A stretch of 40,783 nucleotides of DNA from a virus. Location of the stretch: IMG/VR virus record IMGVR_UViG_3300047563_000061, positions 1 to 40,783 of that record, one strand, 5' to 3'. A program made the position numbers and the translations under genes. Shown here one piece after another: positions 2,185 to 39,566 of this stretch; the stretch's first letter is position 1; each line of letters starts with the position of its first letter. Below the pieces are notes generated by a model that worked only from the letters and a program-made list of their open reading frames with translations, searched no databases and had not been told where the DNA came from.

Positions 2185-2708
2185 AAAACTTGTATTAAAC
2201 TATATTTCATACTTTATATAGCAATCCAATATGTGGAGTCTTAATAATGTTTGAACGCTATAAAGAATTGGGAAACTTTGCCATAGTACCATTAACGGCA
2301 AATCGTTACCGAGGCGTTATTAATGAAGTTGATCCAATTCTTAAGCAAATGTTTAATTTGCCCCATTTACCAGAGATGGTAAAATGAAAACTTCTCTAAT
2401 TGCTGGAAACCCTCGTTAAGCTATACTACCAAAACGGAGTACGAAAGTGCAAACGTCATGGTTTAAAAAATGTATAGATAGAGGCAATCAGCAGCGAAGC
2501 TCCCCTGGCATGAGCCGAGGAGTGTGCTCAACGGCCATCGAACGGCAGCTGTAAAGCTGAACCTAGTAGAGTAGGATACCAAGCGGATCCGAAACGAGAA
2601 GCACCCTACCCTAAGGTTACGGGTGAAGATATGGTCTGATCCACATAGAGATATGTGGCAGGTGTCGAAGCACACCGGGTCTAGGAAGCGTCTAGACTGG
2701 ACAATATG
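2185..2708 (+). ncRNA. Group I self-splicing intron in RNA polymerase beta gene
   Basis: A 524-nt group I intron. The upstream exon ends in T (2184) and the intron ends in G (2708), the class rule; joining restores VNFVSIQQGHTIA, the homologue of the conserved beta segment ANMQRQAVP. Readable pairings: P1 = 2181-2184 with 2360-2363 (terminal U.G plus three G-C); P10 = 2355-2359 with exon bases 2709-2713 (five pairs, directly beside P1); P2 hairpin 2367-2382 with GAGA loop; P4 = 2401-2405 with 2489-2493; P6-like hairpin near 2502-2520; P7 = 2533-2538 with 2631-2636; P9 = 2641-2647 with 2652-2658 (GAGA loop); P9.1 = 2661-2665 with 2672-2676; P9.2 = 2679-2684 with 2692-2697. Conserved core strings AATTGCTGGAAAC (2398-2410) and GAAGATATGGTC are present. 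P3 and P8 were not resolved. No homing endonuclease is encoded, only a 46-codon frame. Confidence 0.92.
2247..2387 (+). CDS. Small 46-aa ORF inside the intron P1 loop
   Basis: ATG at 2247 follows a GGAG (2235-2238) at good spacing and opens a 46-residue frame (MFERYKELGNFAIVPL...). It resembles no homing endonuclease motif (no LAGLIDADG, GIY-YIG or HNH). It lies in the terminal loop of P1, and its last codons overlap the internal guide sequence and P2 (2355-2382), so translation would unfold the splice-site helix. It may be a real small protein, the remnant of a longer intron ORF, or chance. Confidence 0.4.
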   Translation: MFERYKELGNFAIVPLTANRYRGVINEVDPILKQMFNLPHLPEMVK

Positions 2709-5655: not shown

Positions 5656-5657
5656 CA

Positions 5658-6377
5658 ATGGCTAAATATAAGAGAGACGCAAATGCTGCACTCTCTTATC
5701 TCACCGAGAACACAGCGGGTCAAGTTCTTACAAAGAAAGCTTGTAAGATCCAGATCCCTGTGCGCTTTACTGAGATAGGTTTGGGTGAAGTTGGTATCAA
5801 CACGTTCAGCTATGGGTTCTTTCCCATTATCTTTGATACTAACGAGTACACCGTACTGAGCGCTTGCGCTATGGTGGAACTCAATCCTTATAAGTTAACA
5901 ACCGTCACGATTGATGAAACTGATTACTATGAGTTTTACTTTGACCCAGGTCAAGTAGTTATTAAAGCTACCGATTTGGTGAAGAAAGAAACTCTGATGT
6001 ATAACGTTTTTGACGAGTTCATCTTTAAGGGTAAGCTGCCGTGGTACGCTGAGTATGAAGACGTGGGTACACTTTTTGATACAGCACTTTACCATGCTGG
6101 CTCAAAGGTTGCTCAAAATTTGGAAGTTGTTGAGTTTGTAGCTTCCATGATTTCACGTTCTAAGGATGATCGTACGAAGTATATTCGTACTGTTGCTAAT
6201 GCTTACTCTGACGTTCGGTTAGAGAAAGTAGACTTTGTACCACTCAAGAGTGTGTTCTATTCGGTCAATAGCACGTTAAACAAGATAGCCGGTAGTTACT
6301 TCAATGATGGCGTAACTAGCGCACTTGTTCAGCCATCTGAAAACGTCGAGAAGATTGAGGCTATCATTCGTCGCTGA
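5658..6377 (+). CDS. Putative head protein, 239 aa (phiKZ gp176 position)
   Basis: Starts two bases after the preceding stop (TAACAATGG), a coupled arrangement, and ends 8 bases before the protease gene. The product starts MAKYKRDANAALSYL, is a mixed alpha/beta soluble protein with many aromatic residues (DYYEFYFDPG), and has no known motif. Context places it in the head morphogenesis unit; by position it corresponds to phiKZ gp176. Confidence 0.75.
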   Translation: MAKYKRDANAALSYLTENTAGQVLTKKACKIQIPVRFTEIGLGEVGINTFSYGFFPIIFDTNEYTVLSACAMVELNPYKLTTVTIDETDYYEFYFDPGQVVIKATDLVKKETLMYNVFDEFIFKGKLPWYAEYEDVGTLFDTALYHAGSKVAQNLEVVEFVASMISRSKDDRTKYIRTVANAYSDVRLEKVDFVPLKSVFYSVNSTLNKIAGSYFNDGVTSALVQPSENVEKIEAIIRR

Positions 6378-25546: not shown

Positions 25547-25623
25547 GGAGTTCTCCTTCCGTATCTATAGATGTTTATCATTGATCATACTATCCGTCTA
25601 ACTAACCTAACGGACACAAACCC

Positions 25624-25681
25624 CTATACTAAGGGAAGTACCGAACTTTGCAGTACTTCCCTTAGTATAGTAGGTCTTTTT
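25624..25681 (+). terminator. 18-bp hairpin with T tract, rightward
   Basis: Perfect 18-bp stem (25624-25641 with 25653-25670) followed by TAGGTCTTTTT on the plus strand only. No plus-strand gene lies upstream, so it would stop an antisense or leader transcript; on the minus strand it lies in the leader of the 25546 gene. Confidence 0.65.
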
Positions 25682-26074
25682 CATCAAAAATGTAGGGTTT
25701 CCCTAGGGTTTCTCTGCTAAAATAATAAAAAAAGAAATATTCCTATAGTATGATTATTGGGTGTTTCTATAAGGGTACCTTATGTAGTAACGTCTCCTTC
25801 TAAAATGGTGTTTTCAGAGGTATACAGTTTGGTACATAAACAGTAGGTATCAACAGTGATAGATAACTAGTTCGTTACACTCAAGAGTAGGAAGGTGGAC
25901 TGATTACGTTCACTTCGTTCTCTCCATCAGGTTTTTCTTCAAAGTAAAAGAACTTAAAGGAAAAACCTTGCCCATATACATATAACAGTTGATAATAAAA
26001 AAACAATCAAAAGACCAACCGTTATATATGGCGCGCGTTTCTCACCATTCCTTTCTTAAATATCCCTTGGTCAC

Positions 26075-26091
26075 ATATACTGTACTTGATA
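26075..26091 (+). promoter_or_regulatory. Early-type phage promoter, copy 4
   Basis: ATATACTGTACTTGATA with upstream CCTTTCTTAAATA. It precedes the transglycosylase-PhuZ operon with an approximately 100-base leader. Confidence 0.65.
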
Positions 26092-26720: not shown

Positions 26721-27692
26721 ATGCGATCCCTGAAAATCTATGCCGCTGGCGGTGCCGGCTGTAACCTAGGATCTTCGATCCTCAAAGGTCTCAAAGACCA
26801 ACAACACGGACTGCCCGCTATTGATGCAGTCTTTATCGATACTTCGCGTTCTAACCTGAACCCAAGTATCCCCAGTAACAAGACTTACCTCTTCGATAAC
26901 CTCGATGGTTCCGGTAAGCTGCGTGCATCCAACTATCAAGTTCTCAATGAATACTCACGAGAGATCCTCCTCCAGCACAAGCCTGGTGACATCAATATTA
27001 TCCTCTCCTCTGGTGGTGGTGGTTCTGGTAGCGTTATTGCTCCTATTTTGACATCCGAACTCTTGAATCGTGGTGAACATGTGATCGTGATAACGATCGG
27101 CTCTACCTCCAGTCGCATTGAGACAGAGAACACCTTGAAGACCCTTCAATCTTACGAGATGATCTCTCAGAAGCGTAACCAGCCTGTGATCATGGCTTAC
27201 CGTGAGAACTCCGCTGAGCGTCCACGGTCTTACGTAGACTTGGAAGTCCAAGAACTTGTTCTGATGCTCGCTATCATCTTCTCGGGTAACAACCGTGAAC
27301 TCGATATGTCTGATCTTCGTAACTTCCTGAACTACCATAAGGTTACCAGCTTCCATTCCAAACTCTCCTATCTGGGAGTGAGTTCCTCCAGTATCAAACT
27401 GGACAAGGGTCAAGCTCTAGTGTCTTTAGTAACTTTGACTGATGAGAAGACTTCTAGTGAACCTAACGTACTGGCAGCTTACCAAGCAGTCGGATACTTG
27501 CCTGAAGGTACTAAGGAACTCATCCGTGGCGATATGCCCCTGCATGCCACCGTGATTAGCGGTTACTACAACTCTGTCGTAGAGCAACTTGAATCCAAGA
27601 TCAAGTCCTATGACGATGTCCGTAGTGCCGTGATTGAGAAATCGATCGTATCTCGCGGTATGGACACTACTGACGACGGAATCGTTCTGTAA
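26721..27692 (+). CDS. phuZ: PhuZ, phage tubulin/FtsZ-like GTPase
   Basis: Phage tubulin that forms the bipolar spindle centring the phage nucleus and carrying capsids in phiKZ-like phages. 323 aa, close to phiKZ PhuZ (about 315). N-terminal nucleotide-binding loop AAGGAGCNLGSSI (residues 8-20), the tubulin signature SSGGGGSGSVIAP (about residues 95-107, corresponding to GGGTGS), and a charged C-terminal tail (SRGMDTTDDGIVL), as in the tail that makes filament contacts. AAAGAAAG precedes the ATG. It is second in an operon with the transglycosylase, and closed by a 17-bp terminator. Confidence 0.92.
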   Translation: MRSLKIYAAGGAGCNLGSSILKGLKDQQHGLPAIDAVFIDTSRSNLNPSIPSNKTYLFDNLDGSGKLRASNYQVLNEYSREILLQHKPGDINIILSSGGGGSGSVIAPILTSELLNRGEHVIVITIGSTSSRIETENTLKTLQSYEMISQKRNQPVIMAYRENSAERPRSYVDLEVQELVLMLAIIFSGNNRELDMSDLRNFLNYHKVTSFHSKLSYLGVSSSSIKLDKGQALVSLVTLTDEKTSSEPNVLAAYQAVGYLPEGTKELIRGDMPLHATVISGYYNSVVEQLESKIKSYDDVRSAVIEKSIVSRGMDTTDDGIVL

Positions 27693-31775: not shown

Positions 31776-32174
31776 ATGACAACCCCTTTGCAACTCAACA
31801 AGATCTACACGTTTAATACCCTAGCTCCCGCTATCCTTGGTGCACAGATCAAGAACGCTAAGCTCTTGGGTATCGTAGATTACAGCACCGCGCTGAACTA
31901 TGACAACGTAGATTTGCGTTTCCGTCAGATCTATCCGGTTCTGCCTGCAAACACCCCTAACCAACCAACCCTTTGCACGTACTATCGTTTCCAATCGGAG
32001 TCCGGTGAGAAGATCATTCTTGCAGACCAGTGGATCGACATGAACACGGTGACAGTGGTTGAACACGTGAACCTTCAGGTCACGTTCAGCAACGCTAAGC
32101 TGGAAGACGTTACGACTATCCGTGACGCCCTGAACGCTTTGGGATTCACCAACTTTGAAATCAAACAAGTCTAA
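31776..32174 (+). CDS. Predicted SH3-like beta-barrel protein, 132 aa
   Basis: ATG 31776 follows AAGGAAAG. The pattern LNKIYTFNTLAPAILGAQIK, then KLLGIVDYSTALN, then GEKIILADQWID, resembles small phage proteins predicted as SH3-like barrels of unknown role. Recognition is by general resemblance only. It lies 11 bases before the DHH phosphoesterase. Confidence 0.65.
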   Translation: MTTPLQLNKIYTFNTLAPAILGAQIKNAKLLGIVDYSTALNYDNVDLRFRQIYPVLPANTPNQPTLCTYYRFQSESGEKIILADQWIDMNTVTVVEHVNLQVTFSNAKLEDVTTIRDALNALGFTNFEIKQV

Positions 32175-33119: not shown

Positions 33120-33527
33120 ATGACAGAGCAAGTAAAGGCATTTGAAGATCTGATGATGATCTTAGTTACGCATCCCGACTTTGACAAAGCGTTAGTAAGA
33201 GTCGACACAGATGGTCAGGAGTTATTGACTCCGTGTCTTATCGATCCAAACATTATTGACGATGTTCCAACCGTAACAGAGTGTAAGGATCTTGTACTGA
33301 TTGTTCTTAAAGTCTATCAGTTCTTAGATCAATATTTCATTGATGTCAAAGGTCAATGTTCACGACTTTTCTACAACGTCAAACAAGCAGGCTTTAGAAC
33401 ACGCATCACAGAGCGTGATAGTTTTGGCCCTTTGGGATCTTGTGTATCTGTCCCTAAACTTGACAACAATGTATTTATCCGCACTGGCAGTATCGACGAT
33501 AAATGGTTTGAAATCTACTACGGGTAA
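33120..33527 (+). CDS. Unknown protein, 135 aa
   Basis: ATG 33120 (MTEQVKAFEDLMMILV) follows AAGGA; an upstream start at 33084 lies in the terminator. Soluble acidic protein, helix-rich N-terminus and beta-rich C-terminus ending IDDKWFEIYYG. No known family. Ends just before a terminator and the long noncoding tract. Confidence 0.7.
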   Translation: MTEQVKAFEDLMMILVTHPDFDKALVRVDTDGQELLTPCLIDPNIIDDVPTVTECKDLVLIVLKVYQFLDQYFIDVKGQCSRLFYNVKQAGFRTRITERDSFGPLGSCVSVPKLDNNVFIRTGSIDDKWFEIYYG

Positions 33528-33532
33528 AACAG

Positions 33533-33569
33533 AAAAGACACTTTTTTCAAGGTGTCTTTTTTTTTGTGT
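33533..33569 (+). terminator. Terminator after the 135-aa gene
   Basis: 9-bp stem (33533-33541 with 33552-33560) merging into a run of T. Confidence 0.85.
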
Positions 33570-33902
33570 ACTTCTCTATATGTTATGACGAACCACGTCG
33601 TAGATACTTAATTTGTTACGGTGTACATGCCGTTACATATTTCCCACCTGAACGACGCTGTTTATCAAGTGCTTGGTATCACTTAAATCATGACAAGTAT
33701 CATTGTACTGCGATTACCTAATCGCTTGCGATGACGCGATCGCTGCACTAATTAACTACGCGAAACTTGATCGCATGGGCCTAAACTTTCATTACCTTAG
33801 CACCATGATCAACGCTTAAGTGAAGTTACTTAGATAGAATGGAGGTCAACTCTTTGTCTTAAGAGATAGGTAGAGGGCTGACTTCCATCGCGATTTCTTT
33901 TT
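33570..33902 (+). other. Noncoding structured segment A
   Basis: No gene. Several hairpins: near 33709-33725 (GCGAT with ATCGC), a long pairing of TTGATC..ATGG near 33767 with CCATGATCAA near 33803, and a 10-bp stem at 33839-33848 with 33879-33888 followed by ATTTCTTTTT, resembling a terminator. Could be a separate RNA or the 5' part of the next. Confidence 0.35.
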
Positions 33903-33904
33903 AA

Positions 33905-34530
33905 CCCAGAATTCAAAAATCTCTCTGGAAAACTTGTAACCTGGTTCACAAACACTTTTGTGGTTTAAGCTCTTTTAAGAAATGATGATGGTGAGTTTCT
34001 TAAAGGGATATAACGGCTTAGATAGTGAATGGTTATGAAGTCTTTTGTTTATAAGCACTTAGCTTCACTTTCACGAGTGGAGGCGTTTCGGGAATTTCGC
34101 TTGTGCCTATAGATAGAAGTTGGACTCCTAGTGAGACATGTAGACCAAGGCCTGGGAACCAAGGTTTGCATAATGAGTCCACGTCACGAGGTATCTATAG
34201 GCCAGATCATCCATTGGAGATCATAGTGTCTATTCCTACCGAAAGCGAAAGCTACGTGGCATATGAGGCTAGTCTGATCAGCCTGACTTTATAAACCCTG
34301 TAGCATCAGAGTAACAGGACAAAAAGCTTAGAGTAGCTAGGATGAAAGACCTAGTGCAGCCCGTGAGGTGCTTGCGTAATGACTCCTGAAGTAGGTCTAT
34401 TTGACCCGCGACATATGTCCGTGTGGATTCACCTAGAGTAGTTGCAGCTTGTTGTAAGCTCCTACTCTAGGCATATGTTTAAACCTTACACTCAGATCCA
34501 GATACCGGTTTACCGGTATCTGGATCTTTT
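33905..34530 (+). ncRNA. Candidate large structured RNA B
   Basis: About 620 bases without a credible gene but with nested helices: a bulged 10-bp stem 33972-34005; an 11-bp helix 34105-34115 with 34192-34202 enclosing a 6-bp helix 34122-34127 with 34175-34180; hairpins near 34267-34285, 34298-34319 and 34337-34353; and a 7-bp helix (34411-34417 with 34472-34478) enclosing a 10-bp helix (34432-34441 with 34462-34471). It ends in a 16-bp terminator (34494-34530). Its own promoter is not evident. A 63-codon frame (34103-34294) overlaps the helices and is not believed. Confidence 0.45.
34494..34530 (+). terminator. Terminator after structured RNA B
   Basis: 16-bp stem (34494-34509 with 34512-34527), then TTTT. 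Confidence 0.85.
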
Positions 34531-34557
34531 GTACCCTTTGTAAAAAATACTAGACAC

Positions 34558-34573
34558 ATATACATTAATTGAG
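34558..34573 (+). promoter_or_regulatory. Early-type phage promoter, copy 7
   Basis: ATATACATTAATTGAG with upstream CCCTTTGTAAAAAATA. No coding gene follows for 600 bases, only the structured RNA. Confidence 0.65.
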
Positions 34574-35160
34574 AACACTAGCAATAGTGAACTTAACGTA
34601 CGGTAAGAGGCCTGCCGTTATAGGACCAATGCGAAATCCGACAAATTCACCACGTACGCTCGATAGAGGTTAGTGGTCTATGCGTTTGACATGTAGTAAG
34701 TTCTAGGCTGGAAGAGTGACACTCCCGGCCATATTAACTATAACGTGATAAACGTAAGTTGTATGGCGCCCTTCACTATGGCTTACCATAGTGATTCTCT
34801 CGGGATATGGGACCGGTATAGCCAGATACTGGTTTCAGAGTTTAAACCTGGACCCTCACGTTTGAGAAAGAACTAGCGGAGTGACTAAACCTAATAAGCG
34901 GTTCGCCGCAGGGGAAGTTGCATTGATGCAATAAGAGGTGCCGTGAAAGCTTCGTGATTAAGCTGGAGAGTCAGTGCATGACTATCGTAATAGATCAAGG
35001 TTGTTGGTTACACGACCGATGCATAGTAACAAGTAAGAGTCGACGCTTGCCTGTAGGGAATTGACGTTACGAGTTAGTTCCTTATGGAGAAACGTTTTTC
35101 CTCCCTGGCGCAACAGTGCGCTTTAAGACATCCAAGCTTCAAAACTTGGATGTCATTTTT
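34570..35160 (+). ncRNA. Candidate large structured noncoding RNA C
   Basis: About 590 bases bounded by an early-type promoter and an intrinsic terminator, with no credible open frame. Readable hairpins: 34706-34730 (6 plus 4 bp); 34774-34793 (perfect 8 bp, CTTA loop); 34812-34833 (8 bp); 34898-34909 (4 bp closing a TTCG loop); 34918-34931 (6 bp); 34969-34983 (5 bp); 35108-35121 (5 bp); plus a longer-range pairing near 34621-34628 with 34674-34680. Size and architecture recall the ornate large RNAs of phages (GOLLD, ROOL), but I cannot assign it to a family. It is not a tRNA cluster and has no riboswitch signature I recognise. Confidence 0.6.
35127..35160 (+). terminator. Terminator after structured RNA C
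   Basis: 10-bp stem (35127-35136 with 35145-35154), then ATTTTTT. Confidence 0.85.
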
Positions 35161-35175
35161 TATACCCTCAACATC

Positions 35176-35460
35176 ATGAATAAAACTGAACCCACTAAGG
35201 TAACGGAAGAACCCGTGATGTCCGATATCTTCTCCGGTAGTCAAATAGTCAAACAAGTAACTACGGTTAGCCCTGCTTATAACGGTTGGAACTTCTGCTC
35301 TAACCTTGTGTCAGCTATCGTAGGTATCTTCATGCTAGTTGCTTGGTTAACGGGTTTTGTCATTGCCAAAGGTTTCTGGAGTACTTTTGCATGTATGTTT
35401 CCTTTCTATGCCTGGTATCTAACCTTAGAACATTTCTTGGTAAAGTATTCCTTAGTCTAG
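35176..35460 (+). CDS. Small membrane protein, 94 aa
   Basis: ATG 35176 (MNKTEPTKVTEEPVMSD) is preferred over a start at 35116, which lies inside RNA C and its terminator. No strong ribosome site. A hydrophilic N-terminus of about 35 residues precedes two transmembrane stretches (LVSAIVGIFMLVAWLTGFVI; then WSTFACMFPFYAWYLTLEHF). A second membrane-type frame overlaps its end at 35391-35588. Function unknown. Confidence 0.6.
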   Translation: MNKTEPTKVTEEPVMSDIFSGSQIVKQVTTVSPAYNGWNFCSNLVSAIVGIFMLVAWLTGFVIAKGFWSTFACMFPFYAWYLTLEHFLVKYSLV

Positions 35461-35588
35461 ATAAAGGTTTAGATTACTTCCTGGATAACGTGGTAGTTCC
35501 TGTAGCACTCGTATACTGCGTCTATGCAGTATGGTCTATTGTGATAGCTGTTTTCTGGTTTACGTTTAGCACACTTCTCACACACTAA
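35391..35588 (+). CDS. Overlapping small membrane frame, 65 aa
   Basis: Open frame in another phase, overlapping the 94-aa gene by 70 bases. ATG 35391 has TGGAG at 35377-35381. The C-terminal half is clearly hydrophobic (VVVPVALVYCVYAVWSIVI). It may be a separate overlapping gene, or the true C-terminus of the preceding protein reached by a frameshift. Confidence 0.4.
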   Translation: MYVSFLCLVSNLRTFLGKVFLSLDKGLDYFLDNVVVPVALVYCVYAVWSIVIAVFWFTFSTLLTH

Positions 35589-35646
35589 CGCCTGTTCTAG
35601 CCCAAGTGCTTTATGGTTGCGGTTAGAGGAGTGTGCGCCTATGATG

Positions 35647-35696
35647 TATAAGAACGATGACGAGTGATGTCATCGTTCTTATACTCTTTCTTTTTT
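35647..35696 (+). terminator. Terminator after the membrane genes
   Basis: Perfect 15-bp stem (35647-35661 with 35669-35683), then CTCTTTCTTTTTT. Confidence 0.9.
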
Positions 35697-35738
35697 GCCG
35701 TTGATTTATCAAAGCACCTTATAAAGTATTTCAGTCAC

Positions 35739-35754
35739 ATATACTTTAGTTGAG
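35739..35754 (+). promoter_or_regulatory. Early-type phage promoter, copy 8
   Basis: ATATACTTTAGTTGAG, perfect consensus; upstream CCTTATAAAGTATTTCA is nearly the same as in copy 9. Confidence 0.75.
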
Positions 35755-36008
35755 CATTGGGCTCTAATTTTACTCACCCTTATACACCATAAAGTTATTT
35801 AAACATAACTATCATCCTATGATGGGTAGTTGACACGACAGGGCGAAGAACGCTGCGTAAGCTGCGAGAAGCGATTCCTTCTTGTCAACTACTCGTTATT
35901 GTCGCGCCAGGGAGAACGGACAAGAGGAGAGGTATAAGAGTATACCTTAACATAATTTCTAATGAACGGGCTCTTCATTAGAACAACCAACTGCAAAATC
36001 TGTCACAA
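35755..36008 (+). promoter_or_regulatory. Long structured leader of the 97-aa gene
   Basis: About 250 bases between promoter and ATG without a gene. Contains a 10-bp stem (35826-35835 with 35883-35892) enclosing smaller hairpins, a 6-bp hairpin at 35931-35946, and a 9-bp hairpin at 35958-35983. Either a regulatory 5' leader or another small RNA. Confidence 0.45.
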
Positions 36009-36302
36009 ATGTCTGCTAAGACCGTAGAACTATCTGTACTGTTGTCTCTCTTTAATGGGTATGAGGTCCTAGATGTTACGCCGCAAGATGTAACCGAGGT
36101 GGTCTCCCATGTTCATGGTATCCCTAAGGAAGGGGTTACAGGAGACTTGGTTGAACAAGCCATTGAGTACATTGAGCAAAAGCATCCCAAGGTAGCTGAA
36201 GCTGCAAGACTTGTAGCGCATCTGCCTCCTGATGAAGGTCGGTATAACAAACTTATCGACCTGTTCCGTAAATGGTTTCACATCGAACCAATGATCGCCT
36301 AA
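36009..36302 (+). CDS. Unknown small protein, 97 aa
   Basis: ATG 36009 with no visible Shine-Dalgarno, unusual here and consistent with control by the structured leader. Soluble, acidic, mostly helical (VTGDLVEQAIEYIEQKHPKV), ending FRKWFHIEPMIA. No family recognised. Monocistronic, between promoter copy 8 and a terminator. Confidence 0.7.
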   Translation: MSAKTVELSVLLSLFNGYEVLDVTPQDVTEVVSHVHGIPKEGVTGDLVEQAIEYIEQKHPKVAEAARLVAHLPPDEGRYNKLIDLFRKWFHIEPMIA

Positions 36303-37439: not shown

Positions 37440-39566
37440 ATGTCCGAGAATCTATTTCTAAAACCAGAAGAATACTATCAGAGAAAGATTAATCCGCTTG
37501 CCCAGTACGTAGAACAGACAGGCTTTTACTTGTCTAAAATGACAGGTCAAGATGTCACAGTTTGCAGACAGCGTGTTCGTGATGGTATCAAAGCACGGGC
37601 TTTCCCACAGCAAACCGATCCTATTGTTACGTACTTTGAACGCGATGATAACCAAGACCGCACGAAAGAACAGATTCGTTTGAGTCAGTACATCGGTCAA
37701 GTGGTAGCCAATGAAGAGATCCTAGTTCCCACGTTCACTAGTTACTTACCTACTAAAGTACGTAAGTCCATCCTTGTGGGTTTCATCGATAACAACGTGA
37801 AACTGCGTAGTGCCGCTAAGAAGGCAGCTTTTGTAGCTGAAGCTGAGAAACGTACTGACGACTACATCATGTTGAACAATGAGCAAACTAACCGTAAGCT
37901 CTATAACAACTCGATGTCGGGAGCCTTTGCGGCTGGTGGTTCTATTGTGAACAATCCTACAGGTCACAATACGTTAACCTCTATGACGCGGACAGTTAGT
38001 TCCATGGGTAACTCCTCTAACGAGAAGATTATCATGGGTAACCGTCATTATCATAGTCCAGACGTCACGCTCTTTAATATCATCAGCATTACCAATGGCT
38101 TAGTGCGTGAAGAGTTAGAACCTGTGATGCAGAAGTATGGTTTAGTCTATCCTACTGTTCAACAGACGCTGGATTGCATTACCTACTCGTCGGATCTATA
38201 TTGGAAAGATATCAAAGCTTTCAAAAAGATCCAAGACTTTGTAGAACATTTAGACCCGTTAGAGCGCGCAGCCTTTGTCTATTGCGGGGATTTCTTCCAC
38301 ATACGCAAATACAACGAAGACTTCACACGTAAGTTCCTGGGCACTTTGATGAGTAAAGTTAAAGGTGTTCCTGTTGAAGAACCCTTGAAACGTATCCATC
38401 AGTTCGATGAACAGATCGTGAACTATGCGCACCAGATCTGTATGAAGGAACTCCGTGGAGCTGGTAAGGCCTATGAGAAGCTTCCGATTGAAGATCTTTA
38501 TACCTTGATTGCCACCTGTCAAAACATCGAAGACTTTGTGATCCGTCATAAGGACTTCATCAATGCTATCTTCTTGACCGATAACGTACCAGGGTCTACT
38601 GCTTACATTACGAACATGATCCGTAGAACCGTGGTTCTCTCGGATACAGATAGTACGATGTTCGCTATTGATGATTGGGTTATCTGGCATCGTGGACAAC
38701 TTGTCTTTGACGATGAAGCCTATGCGCTTGCAGGCGCGATGATGTTCATTGCAACACAGTGTATCGCTCACTGCTTGGCTATCTTCTCCGCTAACATGGG
38801 CGTTGAGCGTAAGAAACTCTTCATGTTGGCAATGAAACCTGAGTATGTGTTTCCTCTACATTGTCAGACATCGGTAGCTAAACATTACTTTGCATCCATG
38901 GCAGTGAAAGAAGGTAACGTCTACCCGGAGCATAAAAGTGAGATCAAAGGCGTAGGTTTAAAGAACAGCGCAGCGCCTAAGGACCTTATTAAGGATTCTC
39001 AGGCTAAGATGGTAGAGATCATGAAAATCATCCATGACGGTGGAAAGATCTCTTTGGTCAATGAGTTAACGCGTGTAGCTAATATCGAGCGTAAGATCCG
39101 AGACTCTTTGCTTGACGGTAACGTTGAGTACTATAAGCAGTCTAAGATCAAAGACGCTGAGGCGTATGCAAGGTCGGCTACAGAGAGTCCTTACATGTAT
39201 CACATGTTTTGGGAAACTGTATTTGCACCTAAGTACAATTCAATGGCGGCTCCACCTTACTCAGTGATCAAGATTCCATTGATGACTGACAATCCTACCA
39301 AGCTTAGTAATTGGATCAATGGAATAGCAGATAAAGAACTCTCTAAGCGTTTGCTTGATTTTCTAGTTCAGCATAAGAAGAAAGCCCTTGGTACTTTCTA
39401 CATCTCCTCACAGTACGTGAAGTCCTTTGGTATCCCTGAGGAGTTCAAACCTGTGATTAACGTGAAGAAGATTGCTTTGGACTTGACATCTCAGGACCGT
39501 ATGGTCTTGGAAACTTTGGGGTTTTATCCAAAGGTTGACTGGTTAATTAGTGAACAAGGTTATTAA
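37440..39566 (+). CDS. Family B DNA polymerase, C-terminal (palm/thumb) part
   Basis: Part of the phage replicative polymerase. Near residue 150 TNRKLYNNSMSGAF fits PolB motif B (KxxxNSxxG), and near residue 403 VVLSDTDSTMFAIDDW is motif C (DTDS), holding one catalytic Asp pair. No motif A (DxxSLYPS-like) and no 3'-5' exonuclease motifs are present in the 708 residues, so the N-terminal half must be encoded elsewhere: a split polymerase. The upstream gene is Nudix, so the partner is not adjacent. The start at 37440 follows AGAGGA. The upstream frame is closed by the terminator at 37354, so this is not a cut-off larger gene. Confidence 0.8.
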   Translation: MSENLFLKPEEYYQRKINPLAQYVEQTGFYLSKMTGQDVTVCRQRVRDGIKARAFPQQTDPIVTYFERDDNQDRTKEQIRLSQYIGQVVANEEILVPTFTSYLPTKVRKSILVGFIDNNVKLRSAAKKAAFVAEAEKRTDDYIMLNNEQTNRKLYNNSMSGAFAAGGSIVNNPTGHNTLTSMTRTVSSMGNSSNEKIIMGNRHYHSPDVTLFNIISITNGLVREELEPVMQKYGLVYPTVQQTLDCITYSSDLYWKDIKAFKKIQDFVEHLDPLERAAFVYCGDFFHIRKYNEDFTRKFLGTLMSKVKGVPVEEPLKRIHQFDEQIVNYAHQICMKELRGAGKAYEKLPIEDLYTLIATCQNIEDFVIRHKDFINAIFLTDNVPGSTAYITNMIRRTVVLSDTDSTMFAIDDWVIWHRGQLVFDDEAYALAGAMMFIATQCIAHCLAIFSANMGVERKKLFMLAMKPEYVFPLHCQTSVAKHYFASMAVKEGNVYPEHKSEIKGVGLKNSAAPKDLIKDSQAKMVEIMKIIHDGGKISLVNELTRVANIERKIRDSLLDGNVEYYKQSKIKDAEAYARSATESPYMYHMFWETVFAPKYNSMAAPPYSVIKIPLMTDNPTKLSNWINGIADKELSKRLLDFLVQHKKKALGTFYISSQYVKSFGIPEEFKPVINVKKIALDLTSQDRMVLETLGFYPKVDWLISEQGY

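What the first reader, a model, noticed from the sequence alone, without database searches (positions are those of the whole stretch)
34570..35160. Large structured noncoding RNA with its own promoter and terminator
A 590-base transcription unit carries no gene, but at least eight clean hairpins including a TTCG tetraloop. An independent early-type promoter and an intrinsic terminator bound it. This is the size class of ornate phage RNAs (GOLLD, ROOL) that assemble into cages, and I know of none described for a nucleus-forming phage. It could be a new family.
Basis: partly seen in the sequence, partly recalled or inferred. Interest (0 to 1): 0.85.

Follow-up and report, generated by a model that had tools for sequence, protein, structure and literature searches.

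The report
Orphan noncoding RNA in giant phage
Next to the DNA-polymerase gene of a giant, probably nucleus-forming phage lies a 585-base unit with its own promoter and terminator and no gene, almost certainly transcribed as a folded noncoding RNA; it has no detectable relative of its own, but related phages carry demonstrably structured, undescribed RNAs at the matching place.

Summary
The described unit is real. It has a promoter motif at 34555-34573 (the motif occurs 5 times in the window; 0.07 expected), no ORF over 43 codons, 9 clean hairpins (2.9 in shuffles) including a UUCG loop, and an intrinsic terminator at 35127-35154. Overall folding energy is not unusual for this phage (z -2.8 without the terminator; coding segments average -2.3), so the 'ornate structure' rests on hairpin count only. 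It matches no Rfam family, ROOL and GOLLD included. No homolog turned up in phage records, in 80 related IMG/VR loci or with two covariance models, so covariation, the decisive test, cannot be run on it.

A second noncoding unit lies directly upstream (about 33577-34535). In many phiKZ-like relatives the same interval, between a conserved small gene and DNA polymerase, is a 430-850 nt noncoding unit with its own start motif and terminator. In the FLC9 clade that RNA is proven structured by covariation (30 pairs changed on both sides, 20.2 expected). A second, ~690-nt RNA lies 5 kb upstream. Neither has an Rfam match. Homology of the window RNA to them is by position only.

Verdict: credible new noncoding RNA; membership of any family unproven; the cage idea untested.

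The parts
34555..34573 (+). early-promoter motif CACATATACATTAATTGAG of the RNA
   Evidence: 5 copies of the motif in the window versus 0.07 expected; type of promoter inferred from PMC7598289
34575..35160 (+). noncoding RNA 'RNA-B' (the finding), inferred transcript about 585 nt
   Evidence: no ORF over 43 codons; 9 hairpins versus 2.9 in shuffles; promoter and terminator bound it
34576..34589 (+). hairpin CACTA-GCAA-TAGTG at the inferred 5' end
   Evidence: sequence
34773..34794 (+). 9-bp hairpin TCACTATGG-CTTA-CCATAGTGA
34898..34909 (+). UUCG tetraloop hairpin GCGG-UUCG-CCGC
35095..35106 (+). pyrimidine tract UUUUUCCUCCCU (anti-Shine-Dalgarno-like), the one strong match in RNA-B to the tract enriched in D-RNAs of relatives; not significant on its own
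35127..35154 (+). intrinsic terminator of RNA-B
33577..34535 (+). second noncoding unit 'RNA-A' directly upstream (extent inferred; 33577-33587 TATATGTTATG resembles the start motif of D-RNAs in relatives)
   Evidence: no long ORF; z -4.5 without terminator; start motif by sequence comparison
34494..34527 (+). terminator of RNA-A (15 perfect pairs)
35176..35460 (+). small membrane-protein gene (phrog_16613, unknown function) starting 22 nt after the terminator stem; would be controlled by read-through in the leader model
31776..32174 (+). conserved small gene 'h', upstream border of the noncoding interval
   Evidence: 75 homologs among the relatives' loci
37440..39566 (+). phiKZ-type DNA polymerase, downstream border of the interval

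Best explanation
RNA-B is an independent, early-transcribed noncoding RNA of about 585 nt. Inferred steps: the phage's early (virion) RNA polymerase starts at about 34575 from the motif at 34555-34573, and transcription ends at the hairpin at 35127-35154. A hairpin at each end and many short internal hairpins would protect the RNA, so that it accumulates and acts in trans as a folded RNA. The most likely target is the host's translation machinery or an RNA-binding protein: in relatives, the RNAs at the matching locus display pyrimidine (CCUCC-type) sequences in loops that are complementary to Shine-Dalgarno sites, and RNA-B keeps one such tract. The transcription unit is well supported by sequence. 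Trans action and target are inference; I put the translation target at about 0.15.
For: Promoter motif 5 copies versus 0.07 expected. Terminator. No coding capacity. 9 hairpins versus 2.9, 0 of 200 shuffles. Position: across diverse relatives the interval between gene h and DNA polymerase is often a noncoding unit. Among 42 relatives, TATG lies in the first 50 nt of the interval in 21 (5.9 expected) and a terminator lies before the polymerase in 20 (1.6 expected). In the FLC9 clade this RNA is structured: 96.3% of cells paired, 30 pairs changed on both sides against 20.2 +/- 2.4 in shuffles and at most 10 when slid. A second ~690-nt RNA in that clade has 203 predicted pairs, 28 with two-sided change. 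Pyrimidine tracts in the intervals: 3.27 per kb sense, 0.87 antisense, 0.45 elsewhere.
Against: No homolog of RNA-B itself, so no covariation. D-RNA and U-RNA covariance models do not match the window. Global folding energy is within the coding background and hairpin density is matched by a few other stretches. The pyrimidine tract occurs once, not more than chance in RNA-B. Gene 35176 has no obvious promoter of its own, which favours a leader role. No transcript data.
Confidence: 0.58

Rival explanations
1. RNA-B is the 5' leader of the membrane-protein gene at 35176-35460. The terminator is an attenuator, and folding of the leader decides how much transcription reads through into the gene (cis-regulation).
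For: The gene starts 22 nt after the terminator stem, leaving no room for a promoter of its own. Another copy of the early promoter motif, at 35736, also precedes a long, structured leader (z -2.8) of gene 36009. phiKZ has a 5'-UTR-derived ncRNA proposed to end by premature termination (PMC8545117).
Against: The leader would be twice the length of its 285-nt gene. The gene has no Shine-Dalgarno sequence at its start. In relatives the equivalent unit is followed at once by TTTATGCC, which resembles the phiKZ late start site T(-3)ATG(+1) and suggests that units there are separate.
Confidence: 0.25
2. The unit is a transcribed but non-functional intergenic remnant (decayed genes) whose hairpins have no role.
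For: No sequence conservation at all. Global folding energy is ordinary. Patches just upstream (33566-33819) look like broken small ORFs.
Against: Hairpin excess over shuffles and coding, clean promoter and terminator, and a recurring noncoding unit at the matching place in relatives.
Confidence: 0.12
3. The hairpin-rich stretch next to DNA polymerase acts as DNA, for instance as a replication origin.
For: It lies near DNA polymerase; two noncoding units are in tandem.
Against: No skew turning point at the site, no iterons seen by eye, and the elements are oriented as one-strand transcription units with promoter and terminator.
Confidence: 0.04

Closest known systems
D-RNA: noncoding RNA between gene h and DNA polymerase in FLC9 (LC667451.1) and IMG/VR relatives (named here; no Rfam match, unannotated in FLC9)
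   Same: Same interval between the same two genes, similar length (430-850 nt), own start motif and terminator, no ORF, pyrimidine tract
   Different: No sequence or model match to the window. The conserved 5' hairpin AAGGGnnUGGCAnnCCC is absent from the window. Start motif is of late type, whereas RNA-B has an early-type promoter
ROOL RNA
   Same: Size class (~600 nt), phage-encoded, folded, no protein; such RNAs often lie near tRNA islands, and related phages have tRNAs at the equivalent loci (L007, L048)
   Different: No Rfam match at gathering or relaxed threshold; no tRNA in the window; oligomerisation unknown
GOLLD RNA
   Same: Phage-encoded large RNA; GOLLD can carry tRNAs in its linker, and L007 has tRNAs inside its noncoding array
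   Different: No Rfam match; GOLLD members often exceed 800 nt, RNA-B is 585 nt
phiKZ ncRNAs found by Grad-seq (3' UTR of PHIKZ298, 5' UTR of p40)
   Same: Noncoding RNAs of a nucleus-forming phage (PMC8545117)
   Different: About 100 and 180 nt, UTR-derived, two stem-loops; RNA-B is 585 nt with its own promoter

Membership tests
ROOL (Rfam) | match to the ROOL covariance model | tested here: not met
   no match at gathering score over the window or at E<=10 over 33500-36020
ROOL (Rfam) | assembly into an RNA-only nanocage | not testable with these tools
   needs cryo-EM or native gels
GOLLD (Rfam) | match to the GOLLD covariance model (conserved 3' region) | tested here: not met
ROOL/GOLLD context | proximity to tRNA genes | tested here: inconclusive
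   no tRNA in the window, but tRNAs in the syntenic interval of the closest relative L007 and beside a noncoding unit in L048
D-RNA (h-polymerase interval RNA) | location between gene h and DNA polymerase | tested here: met
D-RNA (h-polymerase interval RNA) | conserved 5' domain (hairpin AAGGGnnUGGCAnnCCC) | tested here: not met
   motif search and covariance model R1, best 2.4 bits in the window
D-RNA (h-polymerase interval RNA) | several pyrimidine-rich hairpin loops | tested here: inconclusive
   one tract at 35095-35106, predicted partly paired
U-RNA (FLC9 clade, ~690 nt) | conserved central domain | tested here: not met
   covariance model R2, best 6.7 bits in the region, E 0.44
structured noncoding RNA in general | compensatory base changes in homologs | not testable with these tools
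   no homolog of RNA-B found
tRNA / intron-containing tRNA | tRNA fold, with or without an anticodon-loop intron | tested here: not met
   ARAGORN with introns up to 1200 nt finds none in 33500-36050

The most novel reading that the evidence does not exclude
Nucleus-forming (phiKZ-like) phages carry large structured noncoding RNAs at fixed loci around their DNA-polymerase region: D-RNA just upstream of the polymerase and U-RNA about 5 kb further upstream, exchanging with or flanked by tRNA islands. RNA-A and RNA-B of the window would be fast-evolving members. This would be a previously undescribed class of RNA, comparable in size and context to ROOL and GOLLD.
Probability: 0.35. Interest if true: 0.85.

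Novelty: new variant of a known kind. Interest (0 to 1): 0.57.

Why it matters
The published noncoding RNAs of a nucleus-forming phage that I found are two short UTR fragments. A ~585-nt autonomous early RNA, and covariation-proven 480-690 nt RNAs at the equivalent places in related phages such as the cultured FLC9, would make it directly testable whether these phages use large folded RNAs during takeover, and whether RNA assemblies like ROOL and GOLLD cages extend to them. FLC9 gives an isolate in which the RNAs can be probed at once.

Tried and rejected
Rfam at gathering and relaxed thresholds: nothing in the interval. blastn of the locus against phage records: none. Sensitive blastn of RNA-A and RNA-B against 1.5 Mb of related loci: nothing significant; the neighbouring stretch 35590-36020 matched only through the promoter motif. 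Single-protein searches for closer relatives: none useful. A search of bacterial and archaeal genome contigs gave 8 further polymerase loci, none with RNA-A or RNA-B. tRNA with intron: rejected for the window. Covariance models of the D-RNA 5' domain (R1) and the U-RNA centre (R2): no match in the window; outside the FLC9 clade R1 finds only the syntenic L063 (14.9 bits, E 0.52) and R2 nothing convincing. Single-sequence energy z-score as evidence of structure: set aside, because coding segments of the same phage score nearly as low. A first sliding-window z-score run hit the time limit; a lighter rerun put 33.6-35.8 kb among the most structured stretches on average, with many single windows elsewhere as low. 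Conservation of all large gaps upstream of the polymerase: partly an artefact of my simple gene finder, so only the h-polymerase interval and the FLC9-clade U gap were used.

Full report
The window is a 40,783-base IMG/VR record of a phiKZ-like jumbo phage. It carries a PhuZ tubulin gene (26721-27692, phrog_4733), a DNA polymerase closest to Burkholderia phage FLC9 (39.5% identity) and a multisubunit RNA polymerase gene interrupted by a group I intron (2337-2658). That it forms a nucleus is inferred from this kinship.

Observation. The motif CACATATACWTTARTTGAG occurs five times (up to 3 mismatches), all on the + strand; four copies stand before genes, with inferred leaders of roughly 55-255 nt, and the fifth stands before RNA-B. 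Jumbo phages that encode RNA polymerases have one conserved AT-rich motif at early promoters (PMC7598289), so 'early-type' is a fair reading. The hairpin count is significant against shuffles and above the mean of coding segments, but not unique in the window. The folding energy is not significant against coding segments of the same phage: 'large structured RNA' is therefore suggested, not shown, by this sequence alone.

Neighbourhood. The unit is not alone. Between the terminator at 33531-33562 and the promoter at 34555 lies another gene-poor stretch that ends in a terminator of 15 perfect pairs (34494-34527). I call it RNA-A. Its start is inferred at TATATGTTATG, 33577-33587, from resemblance to the start motif of relatives.

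Related loci. The DNA polymerase alignment brought in 80 IMG/VR loci. In most of them a homolog of window gene 31776-32174 ('h') stands upstream of the polymerase, usually within a few hundred bases. In many, that interval is a 430-850 nt noncoding unit, which I call D-RNA. Among 42 intervals of 250-1300 nt, near-identical ones removed, TATG lies in the first 50 nt in 21 (5.9 expected) and a terminator lies before the polymerase in 20 (1.6 expected). TATG is the phiKZ late start motif. Distant members share a 5' hairpin of the form AAGGGnnUGGCAnnCCC and pyrimidine-rich loops. Tracts of the type UUCC(U/C)n occur 3.27 per kb in the intervals, against 0.87 on the other strand and 0.45 elsewhere. 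The intervals of the two relatives at 46-47% polymerase identity (L008, L010) appear to hold no D-RNA, so its presence is patchy.

Proof of structure in one clade. In FLC9 and seven relatives (alignment A5) 96.3% of cells pair, and 30 pairs change on both sides, against 20.2 +/- 2.4 in shuffles (0 of 500) and 3-10 when the partners are slid. The structure was derived from these sequences, so the shuffle control matters most; the eight sequences are also closely related in two groups. The same clade has a second RNA, about 690 nt, 5 kb upstream (U-RNA; 203 predicted pairs, 28 with two-sided change; no shuffle control was run on it). Neither is annotated in FLC9 and neither matches Rfam.

tRNAs. 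The closest relative, L007 (53% polymerase identity), has a 2-kb noncoding array with tRNAs in the interval between h and polymerase. L048 has about 750 nt of noncoding sequence ending in a terminator, followed at once by eight tRNAs. ROOL and GOLLD are often found near tRNA islands (PMC12286853). This is a parallel in context, not a test of membership.

Is the window RNA one of these? By position and architecture, yes; by sequence, no. Model R1 (D-RNA 5' domain) and model R2 (U-RNA centre) do not match it, and outside the FLC9 clade R1 reaches only the syntenic L063, at E 0.52. These RNAs evolve so fast that lack of a match is weak evidence against kinship, but kinship is not shown.

Mechanism. 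Shown: a unit with promoter, no gene, hairpins, terminator. Inferred: early transcription, stability, trans action. The only sequence clue to a target is the pyrimidine (anti-Shine-Dalgarno-like) loops in relatives; RNA-B has one such tract, about what chance gives. The main rival is a cis-acting leader of the membrane-protein gene that starts 22 nt after the terminator stem.

Verdict. The finding is sound as an observation and credible as a new noncoding RNA. The stronger discovery is in its relatives: covariation-supported, undescribed RNAs at fixed places around the DNA polymerase of phiKZ-like phages.

Noticed in passing
window 2337-2658: Group I intron (Rfam RF00028, 85.3 bits) inside the gene for an RNA polymerase subunit.
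   Followed up: no
L002 2914-3640 and 7459-7945 (Burkholderia phage FLC9, LC667451.1): Two large unannotated structured RNAs with covariation support, about 690 and 480 nt, upstream of DNA polymerase.
   Followed up: yes
L007 4428-6432: Noncoding array with tRNA-Arg and tRNA-Met genes and what look by eye like tRNA halves far apart (5' half near 5656, matching 3' half near 6330). ARAGORN did not accept them as intron-containing tRNAs.
   Followed up: partly
541 terminator-like sites in the related loci: Terminator hairpins are often followed directly by TTTATGCC (TTTATG 24-fold, TATGCC 18-fold enriched), possibly a late promoter T(-3)ATG(+1) placed right after a terminator, or part of a phage-specific terminator.
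   Followed up: partly
window 33566-33819: Two short overlapping ORFs that look like one small protein broken by a frameshift, or chance reading of noncoding sequence.
   Followed up: no
window 25547-26075, minus strand: Gene-free 530 nt between divergent genes with a 20-bp hairpin and z -4.2 on the minus strand; strong GC skew of -0.21.
   Followed up: partly
window 35755-36008: Leader of gene 36009 behind another copy of the early promoter motif; folds with a long stem (z -2.8).
   Followed up: no
L048 4559-4636: tRNA-like gene with a four-base anticodon (cgaa) according to ARAGORN, in an island of eight tRNAs.
   Followed up: no
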